This document shows positions 3,555-33,095 of a DNA stretch of 36,851 nt, one piece after another; position 1 is the first letter of the stretch; each line of letters starts with the position of its first letter. A program made the translations under genes and the position numbers. The DNA is taken from positions 1 to 36,851 of the IMG/VR virus record IMGVR_UViG_3300049423_000005; one strand, 5' to 3'. Source of the DNA: a virus. The notes under the pieces were generated by a model that was not told the DNA's origin, did no database searches, and saw nothing but the letters and a program-made list of their open reading frames with translations.

Positions 3555-3864
3555 TGACCACCTCACACACCAAGTCCACATAGACCTTGCGCGAGTCGGG
3601 CAGCACGACCTGCACATTGAAGATGACGTTCTCAAACAACACCCGCATAGCGGCATTCAGGGGCCGGTAGCGCAGTCGCACCCTGGCTTTGGTGACGCTG
3701 GTATTGGCATCGGCTTTAATCGTTTCCAAGCCCGATAAATAGCGCACATCGGCTGAAATATTACTGGCCACAACGCGCCAAGTGCGCACTGGCTGTCCCA
3801 GCGCATCTTGACCCGAAATTAACTGCTGGATCGTGATGCGGTGGCGCATTTGGCCGATGCTCAC
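3547..3864 (-). CDS. Phage head closure protein (SPP1 gp16 / HK97 gp7-like)
   Basis: A 105-residue protein starting MSIGQMRHRITIQQ, followed by DALGQPVRTWRVVASNISADVRYLSG. This is the standard opening of the phage head-tail adaptor family (PF05521). These form a ring under the portal that seals the filled capsid and docks the tail. The start at 3864 overlaps the connector gene stop by 4 bases. Both the family and the order connector, closure, gp10, DUF3168 match other HK97-like phages. Confidence 0.92.
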   Translation of the reverse strand: MSIGQMRHRITIQQLISGQDALGQPVRTWRVVASNISADVRYLSGLETIKADANTSVTKARVRLRYRPLNAAMRVLFENVIFNVQVVLPDSRKVYVDLVCEVVNV

Positions 3865-4454
3865 AAGCCACCCCCATTGACCAAGTAGCGGTTAAGCAAG
3901 GCATCAACAAAGCCCAGTTTGACCTGGACACCGCGCCCGTTTGTTTCAGCTTCGCGGTTTTCGTACATGGCAGCGACTTGCAGCTTGATCCACTGCTTGA
4001 TGCTGGCCGGCACCAAGCTGGCGTCAACGCAACCCGCGACAAAGCGCAGCTTGACGTCACGCGCTTCGCTGGGCCACAGGGTGGCAAAGGCGGGCGCGAC
4101 GGTGGCAAAGCCAAAGTCGTCGCAGTTGTTCAGCAAATAATTCACCGGCAGCAAGGTTTGAATCACCCCGGCCGCATCGGTGTAACTCAAACTCACAATG
4201 CTTTGCACCGGAACTCTCGTCAACACCAGTGCTTCGCTGTAAATGCTGCGGGTGGGCGGGAAGGACTCCCGGCTCAGTTCCCAGGTTTGTGGCATTAACG
4301 CGCGCCCGGTGGCCTGCTCGGCCAACTCGGTGGCGGCTTCCAGCAGGGTCTGCAGCAAGGCGTCGTCATCGTTCAGGTCCACCCGGCAGTGCGCTTTGAC
4401 GTCTGCCAGGCTGACCGGCCAAGTGCTGGGCGCGCTTAGGCGTTGCAAGGCCAT
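3861..4454 (-). CDS. Phage head-tail connector protein (gp6 / phiE125 gp8 family)
   Basis: A 197-residue protein with LADVKAHCRVDLNDDDALLQTLLEAATELAEQATGRAL at the N-terminus, the diagnostic helical start of gp6-like head-tail connectors. A beta region (WELSRESFPP..., VPVQSIVSLSYTDAAG) and a C-terminal helix SIKQWIKLQVAAMYENRE follow. It forms the first adaptor ring below the portal. The longer form, with the mid beta domain, resembles the phiE125 gp8 subfamily. The ATG at 4454 immediately follows the stop of the small upstream gene. Confidence 0.9.
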   Translation of the reverse strand: MALQRLSAPSTWPVSLADVKAHCRVDLNDDDALLQTLLEAATELAEQATGRALMPQTWELSRESFPPTRSIYSEALVLTRVPVQSIVSLSYTDAAGVIQTLLPVNYLLNNCDDFGFATVAPAFATLWPSEARDVKLRFVAGCVDASLVPASIKQWIKLQVAAMYENREAETNGRGVQVKLGFVDALLNRYLVNGGGL

Positions 4455-4664
4455 TTAAGACTCCAAAGCCAGCTGGGCCGCAGCAATGGCGTTCGGGTGC
4501 AAATCGAGCATGCCATGGTGCGCGCCGGTCTGTGCATCAGCAGCGCTCAGGCGGATGACGCTGCCCACGGCGCCGAAGTGGCAGTCCATCAGGACGAAGG
4601 CGTCGACCCACTCAGCGTCTGCTGGGGGCATCAACACAGGGGAGATTGGTTTCTTTGTCGCCAT
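4455..4664 (-). CDS. Small conserved phage protein of unknown function
   Basis: A 69-residue protein with a central VLMDCHFGAVGSVIRLSAADA, followed by DLHPNAIAAAQ. Small proteins of this kind lie between capsid and connector genes in Burkholderia-type siphophages; function is unknown. The sequence looks like a compact beta domain. GGAG lies 6 bases before ATG 4664, and the stop abuts the connector start, which supports a real gene. The upstream side holds an intrinsic terminator ending the AbiE cassette, so its message must come from read-through or a local promoter. Confidence 0.7.
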   Translation of the reverse strand: MATKKPISPVLMPPADAEWVDAFVLMDCHFGAVGSVIRLSAADAQTGAHHGMLDLHPNAIAAAQLALES

Positions 4665-4682: not shown

Positions 4683-4707
4683 AATAAAAAAGCCCCTTGA
4701 AGGGGCT
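4683..4707 (-). terminator. Intrinsic terminator after the AbiE cassette
   Basis: On the minus strand AGCCCC-TTCAA-GGGGCT forms a strong 6-bp stem with two more possible A-T pairs, followed by TTTTTTATT. It lies 74 bases after the last AbiEii stop and just before the 69-residue gene. Confidence 0.85.
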
Positions 4708-4780
4708 CGTGGTGGAAATACAGGAGATCAGCGACTCAGCGCGAACCCGTCCTCGCAGGACCTGGCTTGGCCAGTGCGGC

Positions 4781-5626
4781 TTAAACGAAGATAAAACTCA
4801 AGGATTGACGCAGAGAGATCACCGCTTCGCTCAAGCTGGGCGCCTGCAAAGCATTGCGCTTGATGAAGGCGTTCCACTGCGCGTTCTTTTGGACGTCGGC
4901 CATGAATTCATCGGACAATCCAAGCGGCAGTCCGACAGGCACCACGGTACGCCGGCGGGCCATGGTGGCGTTGACCGCCTGGTGCAAGATCTGGGGATCG
5001 AGCTCGCAGCGGTTCAACAAGACCCAAAGGTCAAAGTAATCTTCTCAACGGCTGTTGGCCATACCCAGGGAGACGATGGCATCGAGTTTTTCTGCCACCA
5101 CCGTGTAGCGGGGGTAGACCCGCAGACGCGGTGCAGCAAAGCCCTCCAGCATGACCGGGTAGTCGGCCATCTCCGGCGCCGGGGTGACCGCATCGCCATA
5201 ACCGACATCGACTTGCACCGAGCACTTGGCGCTGTCAATCCAGGCCAGCAGCGTGAGCCGTATGCCGGCGTAGTTGGCCTCTTTTCTGATCTCTTGAGCC
5301 TCAATCGTCGCGCCATCAAAGCGAATGCCATCGTCGACGTCCAACTGGCACAGCGCCTCAAATACCCCGGTCAAATGGGGCAACTCAGCCAGGCCAAAGC
5401 CCAACAAATCAATGTCACGCGTGGGTCGCAGGGGCACATCAAACCAGAGATCAAACAACAAAGCGCCCTTGAGCAAAAAGTTATCCCGGTGGATGGAGAC
5501 GCTCAGGCGGTATAACAAGCGTTCCAACGCATAACGCGTCAGCACCCAGGAGAAATCAAGGCCGTCAGCTCGGGCTTTGCTGAGTAAGCGCGCCCGAACC
5601 GAGGCCCCTGTGTTGCGCAGCGTCAT
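4781..5626 (-). pseudogene. abiEii: AbiEii-type nucleotidyltransferase toxin, interrupted by in-frame TGA
   Basis: The frame reads MTLRNTGASVRARLL..., then LKGALLFDLWF and RPTRDIDLLGF (nucleotidyltransferase motif with D71 and D73), NYAGIRL, VDVGYGD and AEKLDAIVSLGMANSR. At codon 194 (5047-5045) a TGA interrupts it. The same frame then continues EDYFDLWVLLNRCELDP for another 87 codons to 4781, which is the expected AbiEii C-terminus. So this is a single nonsense codon, not a frameshift. It falls inside motif IV of the family (NSRxKDYFDL). The ATG at 5626 overlaps the AbiEi stop as ATGA, the usual coupling. The 193-residue product would lack the C-terminal lobe and is probably inactive unless the TGA is suppressed. 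Confidence 0.88.
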
Positions 5627-6222
5627 GTCAAACTTTCCAAATAGGGTCGCATCACGTTGGCCACCCGACAAATCTGCGCGCTTTGCCACAGCTCATCCAT
5701 CGTGACGCGTTTGGCGCTCCAGGCTTCGCGCAGCGCTTCCAAGGCGACATCCAGGCCAATCTTGTTGCGGTACTTAAAGCAGTCTGCCACCGTTTTGGCC
5801 ACGGTCGTCACCGGGATCTGAACGACCCCATCCAGCGACTTCTGCTCCACGCCACTAGTCAGGGCCAATCCCGAGAAGCGCACCACGTGCAGCGCCGGGT
5901 AAGTTATTACAGGCGAGCGCGCCTTCACATCCACTGCCAGCCACACCTCATAGGGCGACTGCGTGGTCAGGCCATGAATTTGCAGGGCGGTAAGCAAGCA
6001 AAAGACGCCCTGCGGGTACTTAAGCGCCACCTCGGCGAGCTGATCATGCTCACTCACCGGGCGTTCACTTGCGCTGTAAATCCCCCGGCTCACGCGGGTC
6101 AAGCGGCCTTGCTGCACCAAGCCCGCCAACGCGGCGCGCGCCACCCCGAGGGCCTGCAGATCGCGGGCGCGAAACAGGCCTTGGTGGTGGCTCAGGGCCA
6201 TGATGGCGTCAGTGGCTTTCAT
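5623..6222 (-). CDS. abiEi: AbiEi-type antitoxin, winged-helix transcriptional regulator
   Basis: A 199-residue protein. The N-terminal winged helix (ALSHHQGLFRARDLQALGVARAALAGLVQQGRLTRVSRGIYS) is the AbiEi_4 domain. The remainder, including FCLLTALQIHGL, ALHVVRFSG and VTTVAKTVADCFKYRNKIGLDVALEAL, is the AbiEi antitoxin domain. In studied AbiE systems this protein represses its own operon and neutralises the AbiEii nucleotidyltransferase (type IV). It appears complete. It lies between the capsid gene and the connector genes, an unusual site for a toxin-antitoxin pair and suggestive of a cargo (moron) insertion. No ribosome-binding site is obvious before ATG 6222. Confidence 0.9.
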   Translation of the reverse strand: MKATDAIMALSHHQGLFRARDLQALGVARAALAGLVQQGRLTRVSRGIYSASERPVSEHDQLAEVALKYPQGVFCLLTALQIHGLTTQSPYEVWLAVDVKARSPVITYPALHVVRFSGLALTSGVEQKSLDGVVQIPVTTVAKTVADCFKYRNKIGLDVALEALREAWSAKRVTMDELWQSAQICRVANVMRPYLESLT

Positions 6223-6264
6223 GCGGGCATTATTACATAACGTCGGTAAATTTCAACAACTACA

Positions 6265-6279
6265 GACATTATGAATGTC
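6265..6279. promoter_or_regulatory. Candidate AbiEi operator and promoter region
   Basis: In the 82-base gap between capsid and abiEi lies a perfect inverted repeat GACATT-ATG-AATGTC. Closer to the gene the minus strand has a weak -35 (TTGTTG), a 16-base spacer and a good -10-like TGTAAT. AbiEi proteins bind inverted repeats in their own promoters, so this is a reasonable operator candidate; unproven. Confidence 0.4.
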
Positions 6280-6304
6280 ACCTTACCCGAGCCGTTGCTC
6301 AGAC

Positions 6305-7519
6305 TCAGGTCGCCGAGTTCACATAGACCTTGACCGCACTGGTATCAACCAGGTTGCCCCCGGTGCGCTGCCAGCCGCAGAAACCCACCTGGCCGTTTAA
6401 TGCAAAGGCCGAGTCATCAAAGCGGCGCAGCGAAGTGCTGTTGGCCACATCACGGATGATGTATTGGCTAAAGTCACCAAAGGCAATCGAGCGCGCATTG
6501 GCCGCCATGACCGCCATGTCGTTGTTGACGGTGTAGGCATAGCCGCAAATCGTGCCGGGAATGCCGTCGGCGATACCCTCGTTGTCACCCGGGTTCCAGA
6601 TCGGGCGCCCGGTGGTGTCTTTGAGCTTGCGTAGCACCGCCAAACTGAGGTCGTTGAGCATGAAGCGCGAGCCCGGAGTACGGTAGGCCACGTTAACGGA
6701 GTGAATCAAATCCACCAAGTCGTCGTAGGTCACGCTCAAGGTTTGCCCCGTCAGGCCGGTTTTACCGATCCCCGCGCGGGTGATGGCGCCGGCCGGTTGC
6801 GACACCCCGGTGCCCACCGTGTAGTGGCTGTTGGTGATGCGCGCCAAGCGGGTAGCTAAACGGTTGGTGACAAAGGCCACTACGTCGATCACGCTGTCCT
6901 GGATCAACTCGACCGGCAGGGCAATCTTCTTACTCGAGTACTTGTAGGGGTTCACAGCCACGGTACCAAAGCTGATGTCCAGGGCAGAGGCGCCAATGTT
7001 CTCCGCCACGATCTCGCCGACTTCCGCGGTACCGTCAGAAGCCGGGAAGTTCAGAGCATTGCCACCGGCGGTGCTGATGATTTGCGCCACTTCGCGCATG
7101 CCACCGTAGGCTTTCATCTGGTCGATTACCAGCGCGGCAATCTCACTGGGCACCGTGTAGCCACCTTCGGCCGGGGTGGTGGTCGACATGGCGTTGCGAA
7201 TAGCCAGCGCCTGCTCGGCATTCACATTGTGGCCATGGCGCAGATACAGTGCAGTCGCCGCTACTGCGTCTAAGCCCTCGCCATCCTCCCGGTTGGCACG
7301 CTGGGGCGCTGCGTTCTCGAAGAACTTGTCGGCTTCCAGCTCGCGCAGGGCTTCGGTAGCGCGGATCTGGCCTTTAACCAATTCGATCTCATTGGCGTAA
7401 TTGTCAAACTGGGTCTGGTCCTGGGCGCTCCAGGTCTGGGCACCCTTCTCGGCCAGTAAATGCTTGGCTTGTTGGGCGAGCAGGGCAATTTTTTCTCGCT
7501 GGGCTTGAAGGTTTGTCAT
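6305..7519 (-). CDS. HK97 gp5-like major capsid protein
   Basis: A 404-residue protein. The first ~100 residues are a charged coiled coil (NLQAQREKIALLAQQAKHLL, then EIELVKGQIRATEALRELEADKF), the delta scaffold removed by the prohead protease. The HK97 fold follows, with STTTPAEGGYTVPSEIAALVIDQMK, AVNPYKYSSKKIALPVELIQDS and YTVNNDMAVMAANARSIAFGDFSQYIIRD. This is PF05065. The ATG at 7519 is chosen; a TTG start 10 codons upstream would lie inside the terminator hairpin. No clear Shine-Dalgarno is present. The gene follows the ClpP-like protease, as usual. Confidence 0.96.
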   Translation of the reverse strand: MTNLQAQREKIALLAQQAKHLLAEKGAQTWSAQDQTQFDNYANEIELVKGQIRATEALRELEADKFFENAAPQRANREDGEGLDAVAATALYLRHGHNVNAEQALAIRNAMSTTTPAEGGYTVPSEIAALVIDQMKAYGGMREVAQIISTAGGNALNFPASDGTAEVGEIVAENIGASALDISFGTVAVNPYKYSSKKIALPVELIQDSVIDVVAFVTNRLATRLARITNSHYTVGTGVSQPAGAITRAGIGKTGLTGQTLSVTYDDLVDLIHSVNVAYRTPGSRFMLNDLSLAVLRKLKDTTGRPIWNPGDNEGIADGIPGTICGYAYTVNNDMAVMAANARSIAFGDFSQYIIRDVANSTSLRRFDDSAFALNGQVGFCGWQRTGGNLVDTSAVKVYVNSAT

Positions 7520-8493: not shown

Positions 8494-8679
8494 CTAGTTC
8501 AGGATGGCAAAAAAAAGGGCATCGTCGTTGTCCAAGCGACGCCGGCGCTTGACCCGAATACGGGTTCGGTAGTCACCGCGCCATTCGTCCTGGCCCACGT
8601 TGGCAAAACCTTGCACCGCCAGCACCATGGCAGCAAAACCGAGGCCTTGCAGTGCGATCGCCAAGGGGGTGAGCGTCAT
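8494..8679 (-). CDS. Small phage protein of unknown function
   Basis: A 61-residue protein, MTLTPLAIALQGLGFAAMVLAVQGF followed by a basic RTRIRVKRRRRLDNDDALFF. The N-terminus is hydrophobic, though short of a certain membrane helix; the rest is strongly basic. ATG 8679 overlaps the stop of the repeat protein as ATGA, and its stop overlaps the ribosome-binding site of the protease. Both support a translated gene. I do not recognise a family. Confidence 0.65.
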   Translation of the reverse strand: MTLTPLAIALQGLGFAAMVLAVQGFANVGQDEWRGDYRTRIRVKRRRRLDNDDALFFAILN

Positions 8680-10343
8680 TGCCGCGTCACGGTGGTCAAA
8701 CTGCCCACTTGGGCGATGGCCTGGTTAATGGGTCCGGCGCTGCGCTTGTTGGCACTGACCACCAGTGGCACGGTCAAACCATGCAAGGCGGCCAAAGCTT
8801 CAATCCAACTCCCCACATCGCCCACCAAACTGGGTGCACTGCTGGTGGTGATCGTCACAACATCACTGCCGCTGACGACTTGCGCCAAACTACCGGCTGA
8901 CCGGCTGGTGTCCGTCACTTGTAGCGGGTGGTTGTTCACCAGACCATGCAAGAGCGCCAATTGGTAGACCAGGTTGGCTTGATTCGGGGTCACGCTGTAA
9001 CTGCTAGCCTGCACCGCACCTAAGGCGTCTGAACTGCTGTCGATGTTGTGCTCGCTTTGACCGGCAATCACCAGCGCAAGCGAACCCTCCCCCAGCATCG
9101 CATCCAAGGGCTGCACTTGATAGGCTTGAACAGGAAGCGCACCACTGGCAACACTGCTCATGGCGGTGCTCCCTGATGCCGCACCACTGACCTGCACGAT
9201 GGCAGTCGCCCGGCTGGCCCACTCAAGCGTCGCGCTCTGCGTGCCCTGCAGCAGCAACTGGCCTGCCACCTCCCCCATTTGGGCGATGCCCGTCGCACTG
9301 TGGCCCACCAGGCTGAGGGCGCCGACTGCCACTTGGTTGGTGGAGATGCTGCTGAACGCACTGCCCTGCAAGGCCACTTTTGCTGCGGCTACGCTGGTCT
9401 GGCTGCTGGTGGTCGACTGTGTTGCTTCAATGACCTCTACGCCAGCGCCCGCACTGACCACCGCCACACTGTGGCTGGCGACCCCAGACAGCGACACGAG
9501 CCCCAAGGAGGTGCTGTGTTGGCTAAGGCTGCTTGCTGCCGTGGCGTTTAAGGCCACAAGTCCAGCAGCACTGCTGACTTGGCGGGTGGTGCTGCTGGCT
9601 GTACCCAGCAAAGGCACCGGACCCACCAGGCCGAGCGCTGACGCGGTTTGACTTGCGGTGTAGGCTGCATAGCCCGACAAGCTCACTTGGCCACTGCCCA
9701 GGCTGGCTTGCAACAGGGTCTGCGTTGCCTGAGCAATCACTGCTACATGGGCATGTCCAATACTGCTTTGCGTCGTGGTGGTGCTGGCTGTGCCCACCAC
9801 GGGTAATGCGGCAACCGTGCCAAAAGCCAGGCTGCTTTGCACGGTACTGTGTGAACTGGTTCCACTAAGACCAAGCAGGCCCAAGGCCACACTCGCTTGC
9901 GTGGTACTTTGCGCGCTGGTGCCGCTAAGCCCAAGCAAGCCCAGTGATGAACTGCTTTGCGTCACATGATGGGCAGCGGTTCCCAACAGTGGTAGTACGC
10001 CTACACCTGTGCTGCTCTGACTCAAGGCCACCGCAGCAGTTGCGGTCAAGCTTAATTGGCCGACCCCAATGCTGCTTTGAGTGGCGCTGTGGGCAGAGAT
10101 TCCTGTGCTAGACGCAGCTGCTGCCACATTGAACACCAGCCAGCTGACTTTGACCTCGATGGGCACCACGCCCAGCGCCACACTGCTTGGGCTGGTGCTG
10201 TGGCTGGCCTGCCCCGCAATCGCCACACGGGCCAGCGCCGTGCTGCTGGTACTGATGCTGGAAACACCCGCGCCATTTAGGGCCGTTGCCGAGGCCTCAA
10301 ACGCATCCGACTCAAAGGCGCCACTCTCAAACGTGGCACTCAT
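8676..10343 (-). CDS. 20-residue tandem-repeat virion protein (probable surface or fibre-like structural protein)
   Basis: A 555-residue protein made almost wholly of Ala, Ser, Thr, Gly, Val, Leu and Gln. Residues about 22-445 are some twenty repeats of 20 residues. Typical units are GTSAQSTTQASVALGLLGLS and ATAAVALSQSSTGVGVLPLL, roughly [GA]xAxxxxxQSSxxxGxLxLx. A few units carry 3-residue insertions. The pattern of spaced small residues and alternating hydrophobics suggests a beta-solenoid or other extended rod. The C-terminus holds two related ~50-residue segments, each with LHGL...RSAG...Q. The gene lies between portal and protease, among other apparent structural genes, so a head-decoration or fibre role is inferred. 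I do not recognise a named family. Confidence 0.75.
   Translation of the reverse strand: MSATFESGAFESDAFEASATALNGAGVSSISTSSTALARVAIAGQASHSTSPSSVALGVVPIEVKVSWLVFNVAAAASSTGISAHSATQSSIGVGQLSLTATAAVALSQSSTGVGVLPLLGTAAHHVTQSSSSLGLLGLSGTSAQSTTQASVALGLLGLSGTSSHSTVQSSLAFGTVAALPVVGTASTTTTQSSIGHAHVAVIAQATQTLLQASLGSGQVSLSGYAAYTASQTASALGLVGPVPLLGTASSTTRQVSSAAGLVALNATAASSLSQHSTSLGLVSLSGVASHSVAVVSAGAGVEVIEATQSTTSSQTSVAAAKVALQGSAFSSISTNQVAVGALSLVGHSATGIAQMGEVAGQLLLQGTQSATLEWASRATAIVQVSGAASGSTAMSSVASGALPVQAYQVQPLDAMLGEGSLALVIAGQSEHNIDSSSDALGAVQASSYSVTPNQANLVYQLALLHGLVNNHPLQVTDTSRSAGSLAQVVSGSDVVTITTSSAPSLVGDVGSWIEALAALHGLTVPLVVSANKRSAGPINQAIAQVGSLTTVTRQ
9009..10280 (-). repeat. Coding tandem repeats, 60-bp unit, about 20 degenerate copies
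   Basis: The 20-residue protein repeats correspond to a 60-bp DNA period. Conserved GCTGCTTTG-like and ACACTGCTTG-like plus-strand words encode the Q-S/A-S core. Copies are diverged in sequence, so the array is old rather than freshly amplified. Confidence 0.85.
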
Positions 10344-11302
10344 CAGTAATCGGTCTCGATGTAGGCGTTGATCACATCAAGCGAGACCGCCAGCGCGGTG
10401 GCGTTGTTGCAGCGCCAAAGGCGCGGCGCCAACAAGGTGGTGTTGGCAGGGGTCTGTAGCCCTGGGGTGGCAGGTGTGAGCGTGCCCCCGATGCTCGTGC
10501 CCGTGTCAATGCGCTCAAGCTGGTAGCTGACCTCACCGTTGCTGTTGGGTGGGCACCACAGCATCAAGTCATAGGGCACGCTGGGGTTGGCCGGTGGGAA
10601 GTCAGTGCCCAAAGCAATGGCGGTTTGGGCCGCACTGCCGCCACAGACCAGATACAACTGGGTGGCATCGGTGCTCAGTTGCGCCACACCAAAACTATTG
10701 AGCAAGGAAGATGGATCGACATTAGTGGGCACCGCAGTCGCACTGGACATACCGACAAACATTCTGGCGCCCGAGACAGTCGCCGCATCGGTGATGGCAA
10801 AGCGCACCGAGTAAAAGAAGCCACCATCGCCGCTGCCCGTGCCCGTGCTGAACTGGGCTGCAGGCGCGCGCAAGGAGCACAGCGAGCCTGCGGTGCTGGC
10901 ACTGGGGTACTGGATGCGGCGCATACGGGTCAGCCGGTTGGTGGTCGCCACATTGCGCGCCGTTGGCGTGCCCACCGCCGTCCAGGCCAAAAAGCCATCC
11001 ACGCCGGGCAAGGTAGCGGAGTTGCCGGACGGGTTCCAGCGCCCGGACTTTTGACGCCACAGCGAGGGTTGCAAGGCGTAATCCATGCCACTGGGGCCCA
11101 CCACCGCTGCCATGACCCGGGTGTAGCCCAAGGTGCGGCCAAACAGGTTGAAGTTGCCTTGGGCCGGAACTCCTGGGGTCGCCACCGCCGGGAACGTGAC
11201 CTCCGAGTCGATCACATGGTTGCTGTTCCAATTGCTCGGCTGCACCAAGGTGGCATCAGCCCCATCGGCTTTGGCACTGGCAAAGGTGTGTTTGATGGCC
11301 AT
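10343..11302 (-). CDS. Phage structural protein of unknown function, probable surface protein
   Basis: A 319-residue protein starting MAIKHTFASAKADGADATLVQPSNWNSNHVI, an opening commonly seen in phage tail-fibre-like and accessory structural proteins. The body (GFFYSVRFAITDAATVSGARMFVGMSSA, LYLVCGGSAAQTAIALG) is beta-rich and looks like a jelly-roll carbohydrate-binding or receptor-contact domain. ATG 11302 lies just after the upstream stop, with no good ribosome-binding site, so translation is probably coupled; a non-ATG start 19 codons earlier is less likely. The exact role is unknown. Confidence 0.72.
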   Translation of the reverse strand: MAIKHTFASAKADGADATLVQPSNWNSNHVIDSEVTFPAVATPGVPAQGNFNLFGRTLGYTRVMAAVVGPSGMDYALQPSLWRQKSGRWNPSGNSATLPGVDGFLAWTAVGTPTARNVATTNRLTRMRRIQYPSASTAGSLCSLRAPAAQFSTGTGSGDGGFFYSVRFAITDAATVSGARMFVGMSSATAVPTNVDPSSLLNSFGVAQLSTDATQLYLVCGGSAAQTAIALGTDFPPANPSVPYDLMLWCPPNSNGEVSYQLERIDTGTSIGGTLTPATPGLQTPANTTLLAPRLWRCNNATALAVSLDVINAYIETDY

Positions 11303-11306
11303 GGCG

Positions 11307-12434
11307 TTAGGTGGAGGCTGAGGTGGAAGTGAGGATGACCGAGAGCGCGCCAGCGCCAATCATGGCGATCTGCTGCGCGGTCAAGGTTTGGGTGTACGTG
11401 GTCAGGGTACTGCTCAAGGCATGGCTCCAACTGGCTATCGGGGTGCCGTTTTGTGTCAAGGTCACGCTCAAACCATTGCCGGTGGCACTGCTGGCGCGGT
11501 AGCTGATCGTTTGCTCTGCGGTACCGGGGTAACTGGTCTCAGTCAGCAGCACTTCGCAGCTGCTCAAGGCGGTCACCGAGATAAAGTCGCCATCATTGGC
11601 CACCGCTTCATCAAGCACGCCGCTTAAGGTCGTGCCACTGCTGGGACTCCACTGGCCGGTGCGGGTGTCACTGGCGGGGCGGCCTAAGGTGGGCAAACTG
11701 ACCTGGCTGGCACTGCGCCATTCCAAGCTATTTTTAGCCTTGAACAGCTGCCACGGGTTGCTACTTAAACTGCGCACTTGCGCGCTGGACAAGGCCCGGT
11801 TCCACACCGCCAGCAGCACTGGTCGGTGGTGCAAATAGGCGTAACGACCGCCGCTGTAGTTGGTGCAGCCCAGCTCGAAGTTAATCGTTGCAGAACTCGG
11901 GGCTGTTGTGCCACCCGCAAACGCATTGGGCGTGCCCAACACACCGTTTTGATAGGGCTTGATGCCTTGACTGCCCCAAGTGCCGCACAGGTTGAGCACA
12001 CCGACTTGGCCGGTATAAGGCAACAGCGCTTTGTTGTTGTCCACCCAAAAGCCGTTGGATTGAAACCCTAAACCGATGTAACCCGCGTCACTTTGGCTCT
12101 GGGCGCAGGGTGTGGCCCCAGTGGCGTCCCAGTTGGGCGCATCACTGGAGAGTAAAAACAGCGTGCCGTTGGCGCTGACATACTTTTGCCGCAGGTCCAG
12201 GCTTTGGTTCAAAGCCGGGTCACCCACTTCATAGGCTTTGCCCTGCAAGGTAGTAACGGATGGGCAGGCTGGACTGCCACGCGTAACGATCCGGGTGCCA
12301 TTGACCCAATCCACCGTGCCGTCGGCGCCGCAGTACAGGCTGACCAAGCCCTGGGCCAAAGGGTGGCCCCAGTCAATCGTGCCCGGGGTAGCTGGTTGGC
12401 GGGTTTGGCTAAAACGCCGAAGGGTGACGGACAT
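11307..12434 (-). CDS. LamG / concanavalin A-like domain structural protein
   Basis: A 375-residue protein. Residues about 1-230 resemble a LamG/concanavalin A-like module: WGHPLAQGLVSLYCGADG, then LAVWNRALSSAQVRSLSSNPWQLF, which is the typical terminal signature of phage LamG-like proteins. Residues 240-375 form a separate beta domain (GDFISVTALSSCEVLLTE, NGLSVTLTQNGTPIASW) of Ig or fibronectin-like character. Such proteins are usually exposed on the virion and bind glycans (family knowledge). It belongs to the cassette between protease and portal. Start ATG at 12434. Confidence 0.75.
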   Translation of the reverse strand: MSVTLRRFSQTRQPATPGTIDWGHPLAQGLVSLYCGADGTVDWVNGTRIVTRGSPACPSVTTLQGKAYEVGDPALNQSLDLRQKYVSANGTLFLLSSDAPNWDATGATPCAQSQSDAGYIGLGFQSNGFWVDNNKALLPYTGQVGVLNLCGTWGSQGIKPYQNGVLGTPNAFAGGTTAPSSATINFELGCTNYSGGRYAYLHHRPVLLAVWNRALSSAQVRSLSSNPWQLFKAKNSLEWRSASQVSLPTLGRPASDTRTGQWSPSSGTTLSGVLDEAVANDGDFISVTALSSCEVLLTETSYPGTAEQTISYRASSATGNGLSVTLTQNGTPIASWSHALSSTLTTYTQTLTAQQIAMIGAGALSVILTSTSAST

Positions 12435-12436
12435 GC

Positions 12437-12913
12437 TCAGGTGTAGTAAATTTCGCGGTACTGGGCTGACACGCTGGTCCCTAAGCTGACCCCGGCGTCA
12501 TTGACCAGCACGATGCCCCACTTAGGCGGTACGCAGCCAAAGGCGTTGCTGATCTCAAACTCGCCACGAATCGTGGCGGCCACCGCCCCGGTGTTGAGTT
12601 GCACGGTGCCGAGGTAGGTCAGGTTGGTCGGCGCGCCAATGGCCGTGAGCGTTTTATCCGTGCCATCGACGTTGTCTGACTGCGTGGAAGCGCCACTGAA
12701 GGTGCTCCCATTGAGCGACTTGTAACCGTACACCACCACTTGCTTGTTGCCGGCGGGCGCGCTGGTGGTGGTCAGGACACTCACCTCCAGCATCACTTGC
12801 ACCACATTGGTGGCCGTCGAAGTCGTGACCGCCGCGCTGGCTTGATTGAACCCGGCCATCATGCCGCCTGCAGTGATGGTGAGGGCCGTGGCGGGACCGT
12901 ATTGCAGTGCCAT
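12437..12913 (-). CDS. Phage structural protein of unknown function
   Basis: A 158-residue, beta-rich protein: MALQYGPATALTITAGG, VVQVMLEVSVLTT, KQVVVYGYKSLNG, PPKWGIVLVNDAGVSLG. It has few charges and ends SAQYREIYYT. Proteins like this are found beside similar small structural genes in other proteobacterial phages and may be head-decoration or fibre-adaptor proteins. ATG 12913 overlaps the stop of the preceding gene (TGATG), showing coupling. No enzymatic motif is visible. Confidence 0.7.
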   Translation of the reverse strand: MALQYGPATALTITAGGMMAGFNQASAAVTTSTATNVVQVMLEVSVLTTTSAPAGNKQVVVYGYKSLNGSTFSGASTQSDNVDGTDKTLTAIGAPTNLTYLGTVQLNTGAVAATIRGEFEISNAFGCVPPKWGIVLVNDAGVSLGTSVSAQYREIYYT

Positions 12914-13314
12914 CAGGGGTTACCTGCGGTGATGGTTTTGCTGGTGATGGTGATGTTCTGCCCCACCGCCACCGAGGTGTTGTCCAGGTTGAGGTCACCA
13001 CCCGTGGCGATCGCCACTGAGCCTTGTTCATGGCAACTAGTGCCCGCGCTGTCGAGAATCCGGTAGTAGCCTGCGGTGCCCGCGCCACTGGCCGCCACCG
13101 TCCATGTCCCCAAAAGTGTTTTAGTACCACCAGATGCGGCAGCCATCCAATCGGTTGGTAGGCTCAACGTTGCCAACACTACACCAGTGGCGGCTGCGGC
13201 GCAGTTGGCCGGTTGGCTGCCGGTGTACAAGACCAGCTTGGCCGAGGCGCCGGTGGTGGTTTCAATCGAGTCAAGCAGGTTGTTGCGCACGGCAACCGAG
13301 TATTGGACGGTCAT
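12913..13314 (-). CDS. Conserved phage structural protein of unknown function
   Basis: A 133-residue protein with MTVQYSVAVRNNLLDSIETTTGASAKLVLYTG, LATLSLPTDWMAAASGG and AGYYRILDSAGTSCHEQGSVA. This pattern is widely conserved in siphophage genomes of Burkholderiales and pseudomonads, next to portal or capsid genes. The fold appears to be a beta sandwich. Probably a virion surface or decoration protein, though no function is established that I can name. ATG 13314 is the first gene after the portal. Confidence 0.75.
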   Translation of the reverse strand: MTVQYSVAVRNNLLDSIETTTGASAKLVLYTGSQPANCAAAATGVVLATLSLPTDWMAAASGGTKTLLGTWTVAASGAGTAGYYRILDSAGTSCHEQGSVAIATGGDLNLDNTSVAVGQNITITSKTITAGNP

Positions 13315-16872: not shown

Positions 16873-17082
16873 TCAAGCCGACGTCACTTGGGGCAACGCC
16901 GCCAGCAGCCGGTGCGCCAACTCCAGCGGCAGGACCGCCAACTCGACCACGTCAAACTTGTCCGGCTGGGCGCAGCTAAACAGTCGCGTGTTGGCCTTTT
17001 TTTTATGGGTGTACAAACCCCCTTCCACCGGCATGCCATCATGGCGGTGAACAACGGCCCAGCGGGTGCAGACGCCCTTCAT
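16873..17082 (-). CDS. Small protein of unknown function between methyltransferase and terminase
   Basis: A 69-residue protein, MKGVCTRWAVVHRHDGMPVEGGLYTHKKKANTRLF followed by FDVVELAVLPLELAHRLLAALPQ. ATG 17082 overlaps the methyltransferase stop by 4 bases, and it ends 20 bases before the large terminase start. This tight packing favours a real gene. There is a run of eight A in the coding strand (the KKK codons). No family recognised. Confidence 0.6.
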   Translation of the reverse strand: MKGVCTRWAVVHRHDGMPVEGGLYTHKKKANTRLFSCAQPDKFDVVELAVLPLELAHRLLAALPQVTSA

Positions 17083-18371
17083 GGGGCGCAGGCCAAGGTG
17101 GTGTCCCCTTCAATCGCCGCAAACGTCATACCACTGGCCTCCAGCGTAGCAGCGTCTCCTGTGAAGTCCTGCCAGCGCCGGATGATGACATCGCAGTACT
17201 TGGGATCCAGCTCCATCACCCGGGCCAGGCGGCCGTGCTTGTGGGCGGCAATCACTGTGGTGCCTGAGCCACCAAAGCTGTCGAGCACGATGTCGCTGCC
17301 CTTGGTGTTGTTGAGCAACTGGTACTCAAACAGCTCCACAGGCTTCATGGTCGGGTGCTCGCCATTGCGCGTGGGCTTGTTGAACTCCAGGATGGTGGTC
17401 TGTTTGCGGTCAGTCGCCCACAGGTGGGCGGCCCCGTCTTTCCAGCCGTACAGGCAGGGCTCATGCTGCCAGTGGTAGTCCTGGCGCCCCATCACCAAGG
17501 AGGACTTCTTCCAGATCAGGCATTGGCGCACTTTCCAGCCCGCATCACTGGCAGCGCCCCGAAAGTTATAGCCCTCCGAATCAGCATGCCAGATGTAGAA
17601 CACGGCACCGGACTTCATCACCGCATCGGCACCGACATACGCATCGCGCAGGAACTGGCGAAAGTCAGCATTGCCCATGGCGTCGTTTTGAATCGTAAGT
17701 TTGTCCTTGGTACCGCCCTCATAGGCCACGTTGTAGGGTGGGTCGGTCAGCCACATGTCGACCAAGGCCCCGGCCGTTAACTGCTCCAACTGCTCAATCG
17801 AGGTGGCGTCTCCGCACATCACCCGGTGGGGCCCTAAAAGCCAGACATCGCCGAGCTGACTGACCGGGTCAGGGCGCACCTCAGGCACCGCATCCTCATC
17901 GGTCAAGCCCGGGGCCACCAGCTCTGGCATCAGGGCGGCCAACTCGGCCGGGGTAAAGCCCAGCAGATCAAGGTTGAATTCAGCGGCTTGCAGGGCTTGG
18001 ATTTCCAGCAGCAGCATCTCCTGGTTCCAGCCCGCATTGAGGGCCAGCTGGTTATCAGCAATCACGTAGGCCCGGGTTTGGTTTTCCGTCAAGTGACTCA
18101 GGCGGATGCAAGGCACGGTTTTAAGGTTCAGCTGGCGCGCTGCCAACACGCGGCCATGACCGGCGATGATGCCGCCCTCGCCATCGACCAGCACCGGGTT
18201 GGTGAAACCAAACGCTTTGATGCTGGCAGCAATCTGCGCCACCTGCGCAGGCTCGTGCGTGCGGCTGTTGCGGGCGTAGGGGATCAAGGCTTCGATCGGC
18301 AGGTAGTCGATCTGCGACTCAGTGATAACGGTGGTGGAAGACATCAGGGTGGAATCCATGGGTGTAGTCAT
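17079..18371 (-). CDS. ParB-like domain fused to DNA (N6-adenine or N4-cytosine) methyltransferase
   Basis: A 430-residue protein. Residues about 20-115 are a ParB/Srx-like nuclease domain (IPYARNSRTHEPAQVAQIAASI, GGIIAGHGRVLAA). Residues 175-410 are an N6_N4 methyltransferase with DPPY at 210-213, HPTMKPVELFEYQL from 339 and the SAM-binding FGGSGTT at 366-372. The motif order (DPPY before FGGSGTT) indicates the beta class. Such fusions are common in prophages and modify DNA, perhaps protecting it from host restriction; no partner endonuclease is adjacent. The gene sits between the small and large terminase subunits, with 4-base overlaps on both sides. Confidence 0.93.
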   Translation of the reverse strand: MTTPMDSTLMSSTTVITESQIDYLPIEALIPYARNSRTHEPAQVAQIAASIKAFGFTNPVLVDGEGGIIAGHGRVLAARQLNLKTVPCIRLSHLTENQTRAYVIADNQLALNAGWNQEMLLLEIQALQAAEFNLDLLGFTPAELAALMPELVAPGLTDEDAVPEVRPDPVSQLGDVWLLGPHRVMCGDATSIEQLEQLTAGALVDMWLTDPPYNVAYEGGTKDKLTIQNDAMGNADFRQFLRDAYVGADAVMKSGAVFYIWHADSEGYNFRGAASDAGWKVRQCLIWKKSSLVMGRQDYHWQHEPCLYGWKDGAAHLWATDRKQTTILEFNKPTRNGEHPTMKPVELFEYQLLNNTKGSDIVLDSFGGSGTTVIAAHKHGRLARVMELDPKYCDVIIRRWQDFTGDAATLEASGMTFAAIEGDTTLACAP

Positions 18372-30706: not shown

Positions 30707-31696
30707 TTACGGGGTGCTTACGGTCGGACTTACGCTTAAATCTACGGATTGCAGGTGGCGGCGCACTTGGTAGTAGCCCCCGGCGCGCACCAGCTGGAGG
30801 TACTGCTCGCGCTGGGCTTTGCCGCCAAACGCCTCGTCAAACGAGCGGTAGCCGCAGTCAATGCGGGCGTTGACCTCGGCCCACTTCAGGACCGGGGGCG
30901 TCTTTTGATCACCGCCCCACATGAATTTGAGGATCGAGGCACACCGGGCGCTGACCAGTTGGGAGTGCTGGAAATGCGCCAGCTTGACCCGGCGCCCCTG
31001 CAGGAACTGGGCTGGCTCGCGCTGCTCTAAGCGCGAGACGTAGCCGCGCAGCACCCGGTCCAGGGCGCCGGCATCAAAGGCGTCTACCCCGTCGGCGACA
31101 CTGACCAGCTCGCCCAGGCTGCGCACCGCATGGTCGCGGGCGAGCACCTCACCACTGGGGGCATGGCACAACAGCACCCCCTCGCGCGCCCAAATCGCGT
31201 CCCCCAGCACCCGCTGCATCTGGGCCAGCGGTGCCCGGCGCCAACGCCGTCCGACAAACACCGGGGCAAAGTCATGGGTGCCGGCAATACGCACCTCGCC
31301 CAGATGCCACAAATGATCGGCCACCCGCAGGCGCTGGTTGGAGCTGTGGCGCGGCTCCAAGGCCATCAACTGGCCCAAGTCATCGAGCCATTGCATGACA
31401 TTAAAACGGTACAGCGTGATGTCTTGCAGCGAGCGGGTCAGCACTTGGCGCCGGCGCTGCGGGTTGCGGTAGCGGTAGACACCGGCGAGCTCGTCGATCT
31501 CCAGGCAGACCTCCTCCATCGAATCGAGAAACGGCACCATGTCATGGCTTAAAAAGCCATCTGCCACCACCCAACGCCGGCGAATAAAGGTCTCGCGCTG
31601 GTGCCCCAGGCTGTGGTGGCGCACGCGCACAGCCAGACTGTGCTGGCGCTCCATCAAACTCAAATACGCACAATAGGACGGCTCATCAGGCGTCAC
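30707..31696 (-). CDS. Unknown protein, second gene of a two-gene early operon
   Basis: A 329-residue Arg- and Leu-rich protein that I do not recognise. It contains HQRETFIRRRWVVADGFLSHDMVPFLDSMEEVCLEIDE, TRSLQDITLYRFNVMQWLDDLGQL and RCASILKFMWGGDQKTPPVLKWAEVNARIDCGYRSFDEAFGG. No signal peptide, membrane helix or nucleotide-binding loop is visible. The start appears to be GTG 31696, with AGGGG upstream, overlapping the 469-residue gene by 11 bases. The tight overlap suggests that the two proteins work together. Confidence 0.75.
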   Translation of the reverse strand: MTPDEPSYCAYLSLMERQHSLAVRVRHHSLGHQRETFIRRRWVVADGFLSHDMVPFLDSMEEVCLEIDELAGVYRYRNPQRRRQVLTRSLQDITLYRFNVMQWLDDLGQLMALEPRHSSNQRLRVADHLWHLGEVRIAGTHDFAPVFVGRRWRRAPLAQMQRVLGDAIWAREGVLLCHAPSGEVLARDHAVRSLGELVSVADGVDAFDAGALDRVLRGYVSRLEQREPAQFLQGRRVKLAHFQHSQLVSARCASILKFMWGGDQKTPPVLKWAEVNARIDCGYRSFDEAFGGKAQREQYLQLVRAGGYYQVRRHLQSVDLSVSPTVSTP

Positions 31697-33095
31697 ATAG
31701 CACCCCTAAGCGGCCCAGCTGCGCGAGCACGCAGCGCCGGTCGTCCTCGGTCTTGCTGGTGTCGTTGAGGCCATTGGGCCAGGTGATCTGCACCGCCACA
31801 CTGTGCGCCCGGCGGTGCGTCTGGGCCGCCAAGTGCAGCACCAGCTTCACCTGGGACAAGGTAAAGCCGCTCAGGTCGTCAAGCCCGTAGTCATGCTGGG
31901 CCACTTGGTAAATATGGCGTTGGTCGCGCCGGTCACAACTCATCAACAAGGAGCTGGTGAGTTGCTGCGCCATGACGCGGGCGTTGGCCTCGTCGGTGGC
32001 GCGGGCCTCCAAGGGGTGGGCGATGCGCACTTGCAAAATCGAGATCGCCTGTACCCCCTCAATGCGCGCGTCTTGCAAGCGCGCCAGTATGTCTTGCGTG
32101 GAGAAGCCGACTAAGTTGAATTCACGCAGCGCCATGCTGTGCAAAGGCCCCGCGCAGGCCAGCACCAGCTCGCCAAACAAGGTGGCCAAGTCCTGGCGCA
32201 GCCCCTTGTCTTCGCAGTACACCCCCAATGCCCCGGTGCGGGCCTCCCAGGAGAAGTGGATCGCCACGGCTGCCGGCTCCTCCACGTCGTGCACCTCGCC
32301 TCCACTCAAACGCTTGAAGTGCACCACCGAGCCGTTAAAGGTCGCCGTCACCGTGTGCAACTGCACCAAGGCGTGTGCCGGGGTGAGGCCGCTCGGATCA
32401 GGCGCAGCCCCCGTTAAGGCCGGGGCCGCCCGGGTGAAGCTCTCAATCAGGATCTGCTCGGCATCGACCAGTGCGTAAAGCTGGGCAATGCGCTGGCGCA
32501 ACAAGGCCTTGACCTCGGCACTGAGCGTGGGTACCACCCCTTTGGGGCCAAGGTAGTGGCTGGTGAAACACTCCGAGCGCCACTGCCGGTGCAAGGCCTG
32601 CTGGCGCTCGGCCTGATCAAAGCGCTGCTCCTGGGGCGCCCCCCTCAAGGGGAAGTCTTGCAGCAGCAGCAAATGCAAGGCACGGCTGTAGCGGTCCAGG
32701 GGCGCTTGCAAGACCTCAGCGTCCAAGCCCGACTGCGCATCGAGCAAGGCCGAGGTGGCCTGCGCACCGTAATCATCATCGAGCAACACCACCCGTTCGG
32801 CGGCATTTTGCAAGCGCTGTTGTTGGGCGGCAGGCCAACGCGCCACCTCCTCAAACCACACCGTGCGGTCCGCGCTGGGCAACACCCCAAAGGCGCCTTG
32901 GGCCAGCACGGCCAGGCGGCTCAGACCTTGCCCGCTGATGCGTGCCAACAGCACCAGCACCAAGTTGGGTTGCTTGACTTTGCGCAGCAGGCTCACAAAG
33001 TGCTCCATGCCGGGCAGCAGCTCTGGGCCGCCGTCGCAGGCGTGGGCCTGTGGCGTGGGCGACTGGGTCGGTGGCGTGGTCGGTTCAAGTGTCAT
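31686..33095 (-). CDS. Unknown protein, first gene of a two-gene early operon
   Basis: A 469-residue protein, soluble and mostly helical by eye, with no motif I can name. Segments include PGMEHFVSLLRKVKQPNLVLVLLARISGQGLSRLAVLAQ, HFKRLSGGEVHDVEEPAAVAIHFSWEARTGALGVYCEDKGL and LVGFSTQDILARLQDARIEGVQAISILQVRIAHPL. The first gene after the repressor terminator, with GGGAG before ATG 33095. The location, between repressor and replication genes, is where phages often carry immunity, exclusion or host-takeover functions, but it could also be a core gene of this phage group. Confidence 0.78.
   Translation of the reverse strand: MTLEPTTPPTQSPTPQAHACDGGPELLPGMEHFVSLLRKVKQPNLVLVLLARISGQGLSRLAVLAQGAFGVLPSADRTVWFEEVARWPAAQQQRLQNAAERVVLLDDDYGAQATSALLDAQSGLDAEVLQAPLDRYSRALHLLLLQDFPLRGAPQEQRFDQAERQQALHRQWRSECFTSHYLGPKGVVPTLSAEVKALLRQRIAQLYALVDAEQILIESFTRAAPALTGAAPDPSGLTPAHALVQLHTVTATFNGSVVHFKRLSGGEVHDVEEPAAVAIHFSWEARTGALGVYCEDKGLRQDLATLFGELVLACAGPLHSMALREFNLVGFSTQDILARLQDARIEGVQAISILQVRIAHPLEARATDEANARVMAQQLTSSLLMSCDRRDQRHIYQVAQHDYGLDDLSGFTLSQVKLVLHLAAQTHRRAHSVAVQITWPNGLNDTSKTEDDRRCVLAQLGRLGVLCDA

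What the first reader, a model, noticed from the sequence alone, without database searches (positions are those of the whole stretch)
4683..6304. AbiE cassette inserted among head genes, with the toxin cut by a TGA inside motif IV
The sequence shows an intact AbiEi antitoxin and a coupled AbiEii whose frame carries a single TGA at codon 194, exactly where family motif IV reads NSR-x-K/E-DYFDL. The rest of the toxin (87 codons) is still in frame and undamaged, so the lesion is recent or tolerated. A candidate operator upstream and a strong terminator downstream make the cassette a self-contained moron between capsid and connector genes. Possibilities are a lab or natural inactivation of a costly toxin, or read-through giving a low dose of full-length protein.
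Basis: partly seen in the sequence, partly recalled or inferred. Interest (0 to 1): 0.68.

Follow-up and report, generated by a model that had tools for sequence, protein, structure and literature searches.

The report
Phage AbiE cassette with broken toxin
A temperate phage carries a movable two-gene AbiE toxin-antitoxin cassette between its capsid and connector genes; the antitoxin is intact, but the toxin is cut short by a stop and also damaged beside it, so this looks like an ordinary, recently inactivated toxin rather than a new mechanism.

Summary
On the minus strand lie an intact AbiEi (6222-5623) and, overlapping it by ATGA, an AbiEii frame (5626-4781) with one in-frame TGA at codon 194 (5047-5045). 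Operator and terminator are well supported. The interpretation needs correcting. In about 90 relatives codon 194 is Met or Leu, never a stop, and the next residue is an invariant Lys that is Glu here. Five consecutive bases (5044-5048) differ from the closest intact copy, so two motif-IV codons were hit. The stop removes motif IV and the C-terminal helices; even read-through would lack the invariant Lys. Selenocysteine, recoding or a normally short toxin find no support. The same TGA copy is in a second record (L002), identical over the cassette but diverged beyond it. Two records carry an intact toxin at the same site; one close relative has the empty site. So the cassette is an exchangeable moron whose toxin was recently inactivated. 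In related loci, broken toxins with intact antitoxins recur (9 loci); the reverse was not seen (0). Most likely the locus now makes only self-repressing AbiEi. Antitoxin-only protection against a host AbiE is possible but unproven. New member of a known kind; modest interest.

The parts
5623..6222 (-). AbiEi antitoxin / autorepressor, 199 aa, intact
   Evidence: PADLOC AbiEi 1e-80; all 19 invariant residues kept; model matches S. agalactiae AbiEi 6y8q, TM 0.78
4781..5626 (-). AbiEii toxin frame, 281 codons with an in-frame TGA; pseudogene
   Evidence: Pfam AbiEii 1e-42 when read through; frame shown
5048..5626 (-). Predicted translated fragment of AbiEii, 193 aa, motifs I-III only
5045..5047 (-). 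TGA stop at codon 194
5044..5048 (-). Five consecutive bases that differ from the nearest intact copy; affects codons 193-195, including the invariant Lys195 (Glu here)
6261..6273 (-). Operator, upstream arm of the inverted repeat
   Evidence: conserved in L002, L005, L006
6236..6248 (-). Operator, downstream arm of the inverted repeat, 12 bases after the first
6229..6256 (-). Sigma-70-like promoter (TTGAAA, 16, AATAAT) between and over the operator arms
   Evidence: consensus match only
4690..4708 (-). Intrinsic terminator after AbiEii
   Evidence: z -3.73; conserved in L005
6305..7549 (-). Major capsid protein gene, upstream neighbour (exact start uncertain)
   Evidence: PHROG major head protein 1.4e-66
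4455..4664 (-). 69-aa gene of unknown function, first gene downstream of the cassette
3861..4454 (-). Head-tail adaptor (connector) gene
   Evidence: PHROG head-tail adaptor 4.8e-27

Best explanation
A temperate tailed phage carries an AbiE (type IV toxin-antitoxin) cassette as a moron between its major capsid and connector genes, with its own promoter, operator and terminator. AbiEi is intact and, by analogy with S. agalactiae AbiEi, represses its own promoter through the inverted repeat. AbiEii has been inactivated by a recent small block mutation in motif IV: it makes a stop at codon 194 and replaces the invariant Lys at 195. Translation should end before the motif-IV helix, giving a 193-residue fragment without the C-terminal helices, so no nucleotidyltransferase toxicity is expected. 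The cassette moves between related phages as a unit. Shown here: gene content, lesion, conservation, intact and empty relatives, exact sharing of the broken cassette with a diverged phage record. Inferred: loss of toxicity, autorepression by AbiEi, recombination as the means of exchange.
For: Codon 194 is Met (84) or Leu (10) in the relatives aligned there, one Ala in a damaged copy, and TGA only in the window and L002. Lys195 is invariant, 90/90, and Glu here; Lys195, Asp196 and Asp199 are invariant columns. Motif IV (+DxxD) is needed for GTP binding and toxicity, and D192A impairs it in S. agalactiae AbiEii (PMC3985639). In the model of the intact relative a helix begins at residue 194, and the last five helices all lie after the stop. 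AbiEi keeps all invariant residues and matches solved AbiEi. Intact toxin at the same site in L005 and L006; empty site in L088 with 99% identical capsid protein. Window and L002 are identical from 6300 to 4621 and diverge beyond, mostly by 5-25% per 100 bases. Toxin broken with antitoxin intact in 9 relatives, the reverse in 0.
Against: The frame after the stop is not decayed, which fits a very recent lesion but also some residual use. The broken version is the one shared between two phage backgrounds, which a neutral reading must count as coincidence. Loss of toxicity is not tested. Read-level support for the lesion is unavailable; L002 and the window could stem from overlapping read sets, and L002 starts at 6300, so its upstream flank is unknown.
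Confidence: 0.85

Rival explanations
1. The cassette is kept as an antitoxin-only gene: AbiEi neutralises AbiE toxins of the host or of competing prophages, so loss of the phage's own toxin is favoured and the broken version spreads.
For: AbiEi, operator and terminator are intact. The broken cassette is identical in a diverged phage record. Phage antitoxins against host TA systems are known for other families (review PMC12548467). An AbiEi-like gene without AbiEii occurs in another phage contig, L181.
Against: Serratia AbiE antitoxins did not cross-neutralise each other's toxins (PMC7725324), so the range would be narrow. One sharing event is not proof of selection, and a young pseudogene looks the same.
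Confidence: 0.12
2. TGA is partly read through, giving a low dose of full-length active toxin.
For: The frame after the stop is open for 87 codons and still matches AbiEii.
Against: The read-through product would still carry Glu at the invariant Lys195. No stimulating structure follows the stop. TGA is an ordinary stop in neighbouring genes and no tRNA gene was found. Relatives have Met or Leu, not Cys, at 194, so selenocysteine is unlikely.
Confidence: 0.03
3. The TGA is a sequencing or assembly error and the toxin is intact.
For: No reads were available, and L002 and the window might share reads. Contigs L002 and L087 end at the cassette edge, where assembly is strained.
Against: The same five-base block appears in two records with different flanks. 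A five-base block without length change that also alters the next codon is not a usual error.
Confidence: 0.05

Closest known systems
AbiE type IV toxin-antitoxin system (S. agalactiae AbiEi/AbiEii; Dy et al. 2014, PMC3985639)
   Same: Bicistronic AbiEi-AbiEii order, inverted-repeat operator at the promoter, AbiEi fold, NTase motifs I-III with the x15 spacing between motifs I and II
   Different: Toxin truncated before motif IV, with the motif's invariant Lys replaced by Glu; carried among phage head genes
AbiGII, PDB 9hlo
   Same: Best solved-structure sequence relative of the read-through toxin, E 2.6e-26
   Different: Not truncated; comes from a system named AbiG
M. tuberculosis MenT / MenA (PMC11375011)
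   Same: Homologous NTase toxins with the same four motifs; MenA3 and MenA4 are related to AbiEi
   Different: Intact toxins on a chromosome; distant subfamily
Phage-borne orphan antitoxins against host TA systems (cited in review PMC12548467)
   Same: An antitoxin without an active partner toxin in a phage
   Different: Counter-defence is not shown here, and the toxin remnant is still attached

Membership tests
AbiE type IV toxin-antitoxin system | AbiEi antitoxin with N-terminal winged helix and C-terminal antitoxin domain | tested here: met
   PADLOC AbiEi 1e-80; full-length structural match to 6y8q, TM 0.78
AbiE type IV toxin-antitoxin system | AbiEii directly downstream in one operon | tested here: met
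   ATGA overlap at 5626-5623; PADLOC AbiEii 2e-100 on the read-through
AbiE type IV toxin-antitoxin system | NTase motifs I and II (hG[G/S], x15, DhD) and motif III Lys | tested here: met
   Gly54, x15 after residue 55, Asp71 and Asp73, and Lys180 present and invariant in relatives; residue 55 is Ala in this subfamily where the general motif has G/S
AbiE type IV toxin-antitoxin system | Motif IV (+DxxD) in the translated toxin | tested here: not met
   The stop at 194 precedes it, and the + position is Glu. The locus is AbiE by descent; its toxin copy is not a complete AbiEii
AbiE type IV toxin-antitoxin system | Inverted-repeat operator at the promoter, bound by AbiEi | tested here: inconclusive
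   Repeat present with a geometry conserved across AbiE operons; binding itself could not be tested
AbiE type IV toxin-antitoxin system | Toxicity of AbiEii, its reversal by AbiEi, phage resistance | not testable with these tools
   Needs expression and infection assays
Phage moron | Extra transcription unit with own promoter and terminator, absent from a close relative at the same site | tested here: met
   Promoter-like site and terminator; empty site in L088
Orphan-antitoxin counter-defence | Antitoxin neutralises a host toxin during infection | not testable with these tools
   Only the gene content is compatible

The most novel reading that the evidence does not exclude
The cassette has been turned from a toxin-antitoxin module into a spreading antitoxin-only immunity gene: a phage moron whose dead toxin is tolerated or favoured because AbiEi protects the phage or lysogen against related AbiE defences.
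Probability: 0.12. Interest if true: 0.6.

Novelty: new member of a known kind. Interest (0 to 1): 0.3.

Why it matters
On the plain reading it is a clear natural example of how a phage-borne abortive-infection cassette decays: toxin first, antitoxin and control region kept, with intact, broken and empty states of the same site in near relatives. If the antitoxin-only reading were true, it would show a simple route by which a phage turns a defence module into protection against that defence, and it could be tested directly because an intact version exists in close relatives.

Tried and rejected
The first family and locus searches used a wrong frame; they were repeated with the right frame. Selenocysteine or stimulated read-through: no hairpin better than shuffles, and relatives have Met/Leu. 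Alternative genetic code: TGA ends many genes here. Source of the five-base block by local copying: CGTTGAGAAG is no more frequent in the window than chance. A viral scan for the 16-mer over the lesion gave seven further records besides L002; they were not examined and are taken as chance matches of a short pattern, because the protein and operator scans return only L002, L005 and L006. The cassette DNA has no match among sequenced phages. The paper on orphan antitoxins against DarTG1 is not held; only its citation in a review was read.

Full report
Observation. On the minus strand of this environmental viral record lie AbiEi at 6222-5623 and an AbiEii frame that starts at 5626, overlapping the AbiEi stop by ATGA. 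Codon 194 of AbiEii (5047-5045) is TGA; the frame then runs 87 codons to TAA at 4783-4781. Pfam AbiEii matches the read-through (1e-42), the part before the stop (7e-29) and the part after it (6e-8). PADLOC gives AbiEi 1e-80 and AbiEii 2e-100. The finding is therefore real.

What the stop does. In relatives from 80 genome loci and a set of viral loci, codon 194 is Met (84) or Leu (10); one apparent Ala lies in a copy that is itself broken (L081), and the only other TGA is in L002. Residue 195 is Lys in 90 of 90 aligned relatives and Glu here. Lys195, Asp196 and Asp199 are invariant columns. They form motif IV, +DxxD, which Dy et al. found necessary for GTP binding and toxicity (D192A; PMC3985639). 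In the model of the intact relative L005 (mean pLDDT 93) a helix begins at residue 194, and the last five helices all lie after the stop; the truncated product lacks them. The best fold match is JHP933, a nucleotidyltransferase of H. pylori, and the best sequence match in the PDB is AbiGII, 9hlo.

The lesion is not one point change. Compared with the closest intact copy (L005, 46 differences in 843 bases) five consecutive bases differ, 5044-5048, with no net change in length. Runs that long appeared in 8 of 20,000 shuffles of sites and 181 of 20,000 shuffles of codons. A single complex mutation is the simplest account; its mechanism is not known. Before the stop no amino-acid change could be assigned to the window's branch; after it, beyond the lesion, three could, all in the last 14 codons, a variable tail. 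The lesion is therefore young.

Read-through, recoding and a normally short toxin. The RNA after the TGA folds no better than shuffles (z 0.89 and 0.10), relatives do not carry Cys, no tRNA gene was found, and TGA ends the capsid, protease, AbiEi, methyltransferase and other genes. A read-through product would still lack the invariant Lys. No relative ends at NSR.

Antitoxin and control region. AbiEi keeps all 19 invariant residues of its relatives. Its model (pLDDT 92) matches S. agalactiae AbiEi 6y8q over the full length, TM 0.78. Upstream lies the inverted repeat CATAATGTCTGTA-N12-TACCGACGTTATG, whose arms flank the -35 box; AbiE operons of L007, L014, L016 and L017 have a repeat with the same N12 spacing at nearly the same distance from the start. 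The stretch is unchanged in L002, L005 and L006 although bases just upstream differ in L005 and L006. The terminator at 4708-4690 is strong (z -3.73).

A moron with intact, broken and empty states. The neighbours are the major capsid gene upstream and a 69-aa gene plus a head-tail adaptor downstream; the phage has an integrase gene and is probably temperate. L005 and L006 carry the cassette at the same site with an intact toxin, 96% identical. L088, with a 99% identical capsid protein, has no cassette: its capsid gene is followed directly by the 69-aa gene. L002 is identical to the window from 6300, where its contig begins, to 4621; beyond that it differs mostly by 5-25% per 100 bases, more in places. 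L087, from another metagenome, is identical to the window over 6,210 bases and ends at 6307, the capsid stop; L189 is identical over 4,397 bases and begins at window 4397. Contig ends at the cassette edge fit a mixed population, but can also reflect assembly of a shared repeat; reads are needed. Together these point to recent exchange of the broken cassette as a unit, probably by recombination (inferred).

How usual is a broken AbiEii? Among 100 loci examined, nine have a toxin with a stop, frameshift or insertion and an intact antitoxin; none has the reverse; one has both broken. Weighted by gene length, nine of nine would arise by chance with probability about 0.008 (my arithmetic, 0.585 to the ninth power; the loci are not fully independent, and some lesions in assembled genomes may be errors). 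This fits toxins being costly: two Serratia AbiE toxins could be cloned only with mutations (PMC7725324). The present case is thus an example of a common fate.

Counter-defence reading. A phage that keeps AbiEi but not active AbiEii could be protected against related AbiE systems. Phage antitoxins with such a role are reported for other systems (review PMC12548467). Against it, Serratia AbiE antitoxins do not cross-neutralise, and a young pseudogene gives the same picture. I rate it at 0.12.

Verdict. AbiE by descent and by the tested features except motif IV of the toxin, which is lost. New member of a known kind: a natural toxin pseudogene in a movable phage cassette; interest 0.3.

Noticed in passing
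L087-L166, between major capsid and connector genes: The spot is variable in related phages: the gap ranges from about 100 to over 4,000 bases and holds endonuclease VII-like (L110), HNH (L204) and GIY-YIG (L139) genes, a weakly lectin-like protein (L091) and large proteins without family.
   Followed up: partly
window 8676-13314: Five genes without Pfam family (three of 555, 338 and 375 aa) separate the portal gene from the head protease, which usually lie side by side; the 338-aa one matches a PHROG of unknown function.
   Followed up: partly
window 30707-33095: Two large genes, 329 and 469 aa, near the integrase, without any PHROG, Pfam or PADLOC match.
   Followed up: no
window 17079-18371: ParB-like domain fused to a DNA methyltransferase.
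   Followed up: no
L181:4617-5168: AbiEi-like gene without a recognisable AbiEii, in a phage contig upstream of a portal-like frame (portal reading by eye); candidate orphan antitoxin.
   Followed up: partly
L170:5001-5582: AbiEi-like gene directly upstream of an 819-aa helicase-like frame instead of a toxin.
   Followed up: no
L005:5405-6001: AbiEi of the phage with the intact toxin has changes at three positions (153, 163, 189) where the window and all seven outgroups compared agree.
   Followed up: no
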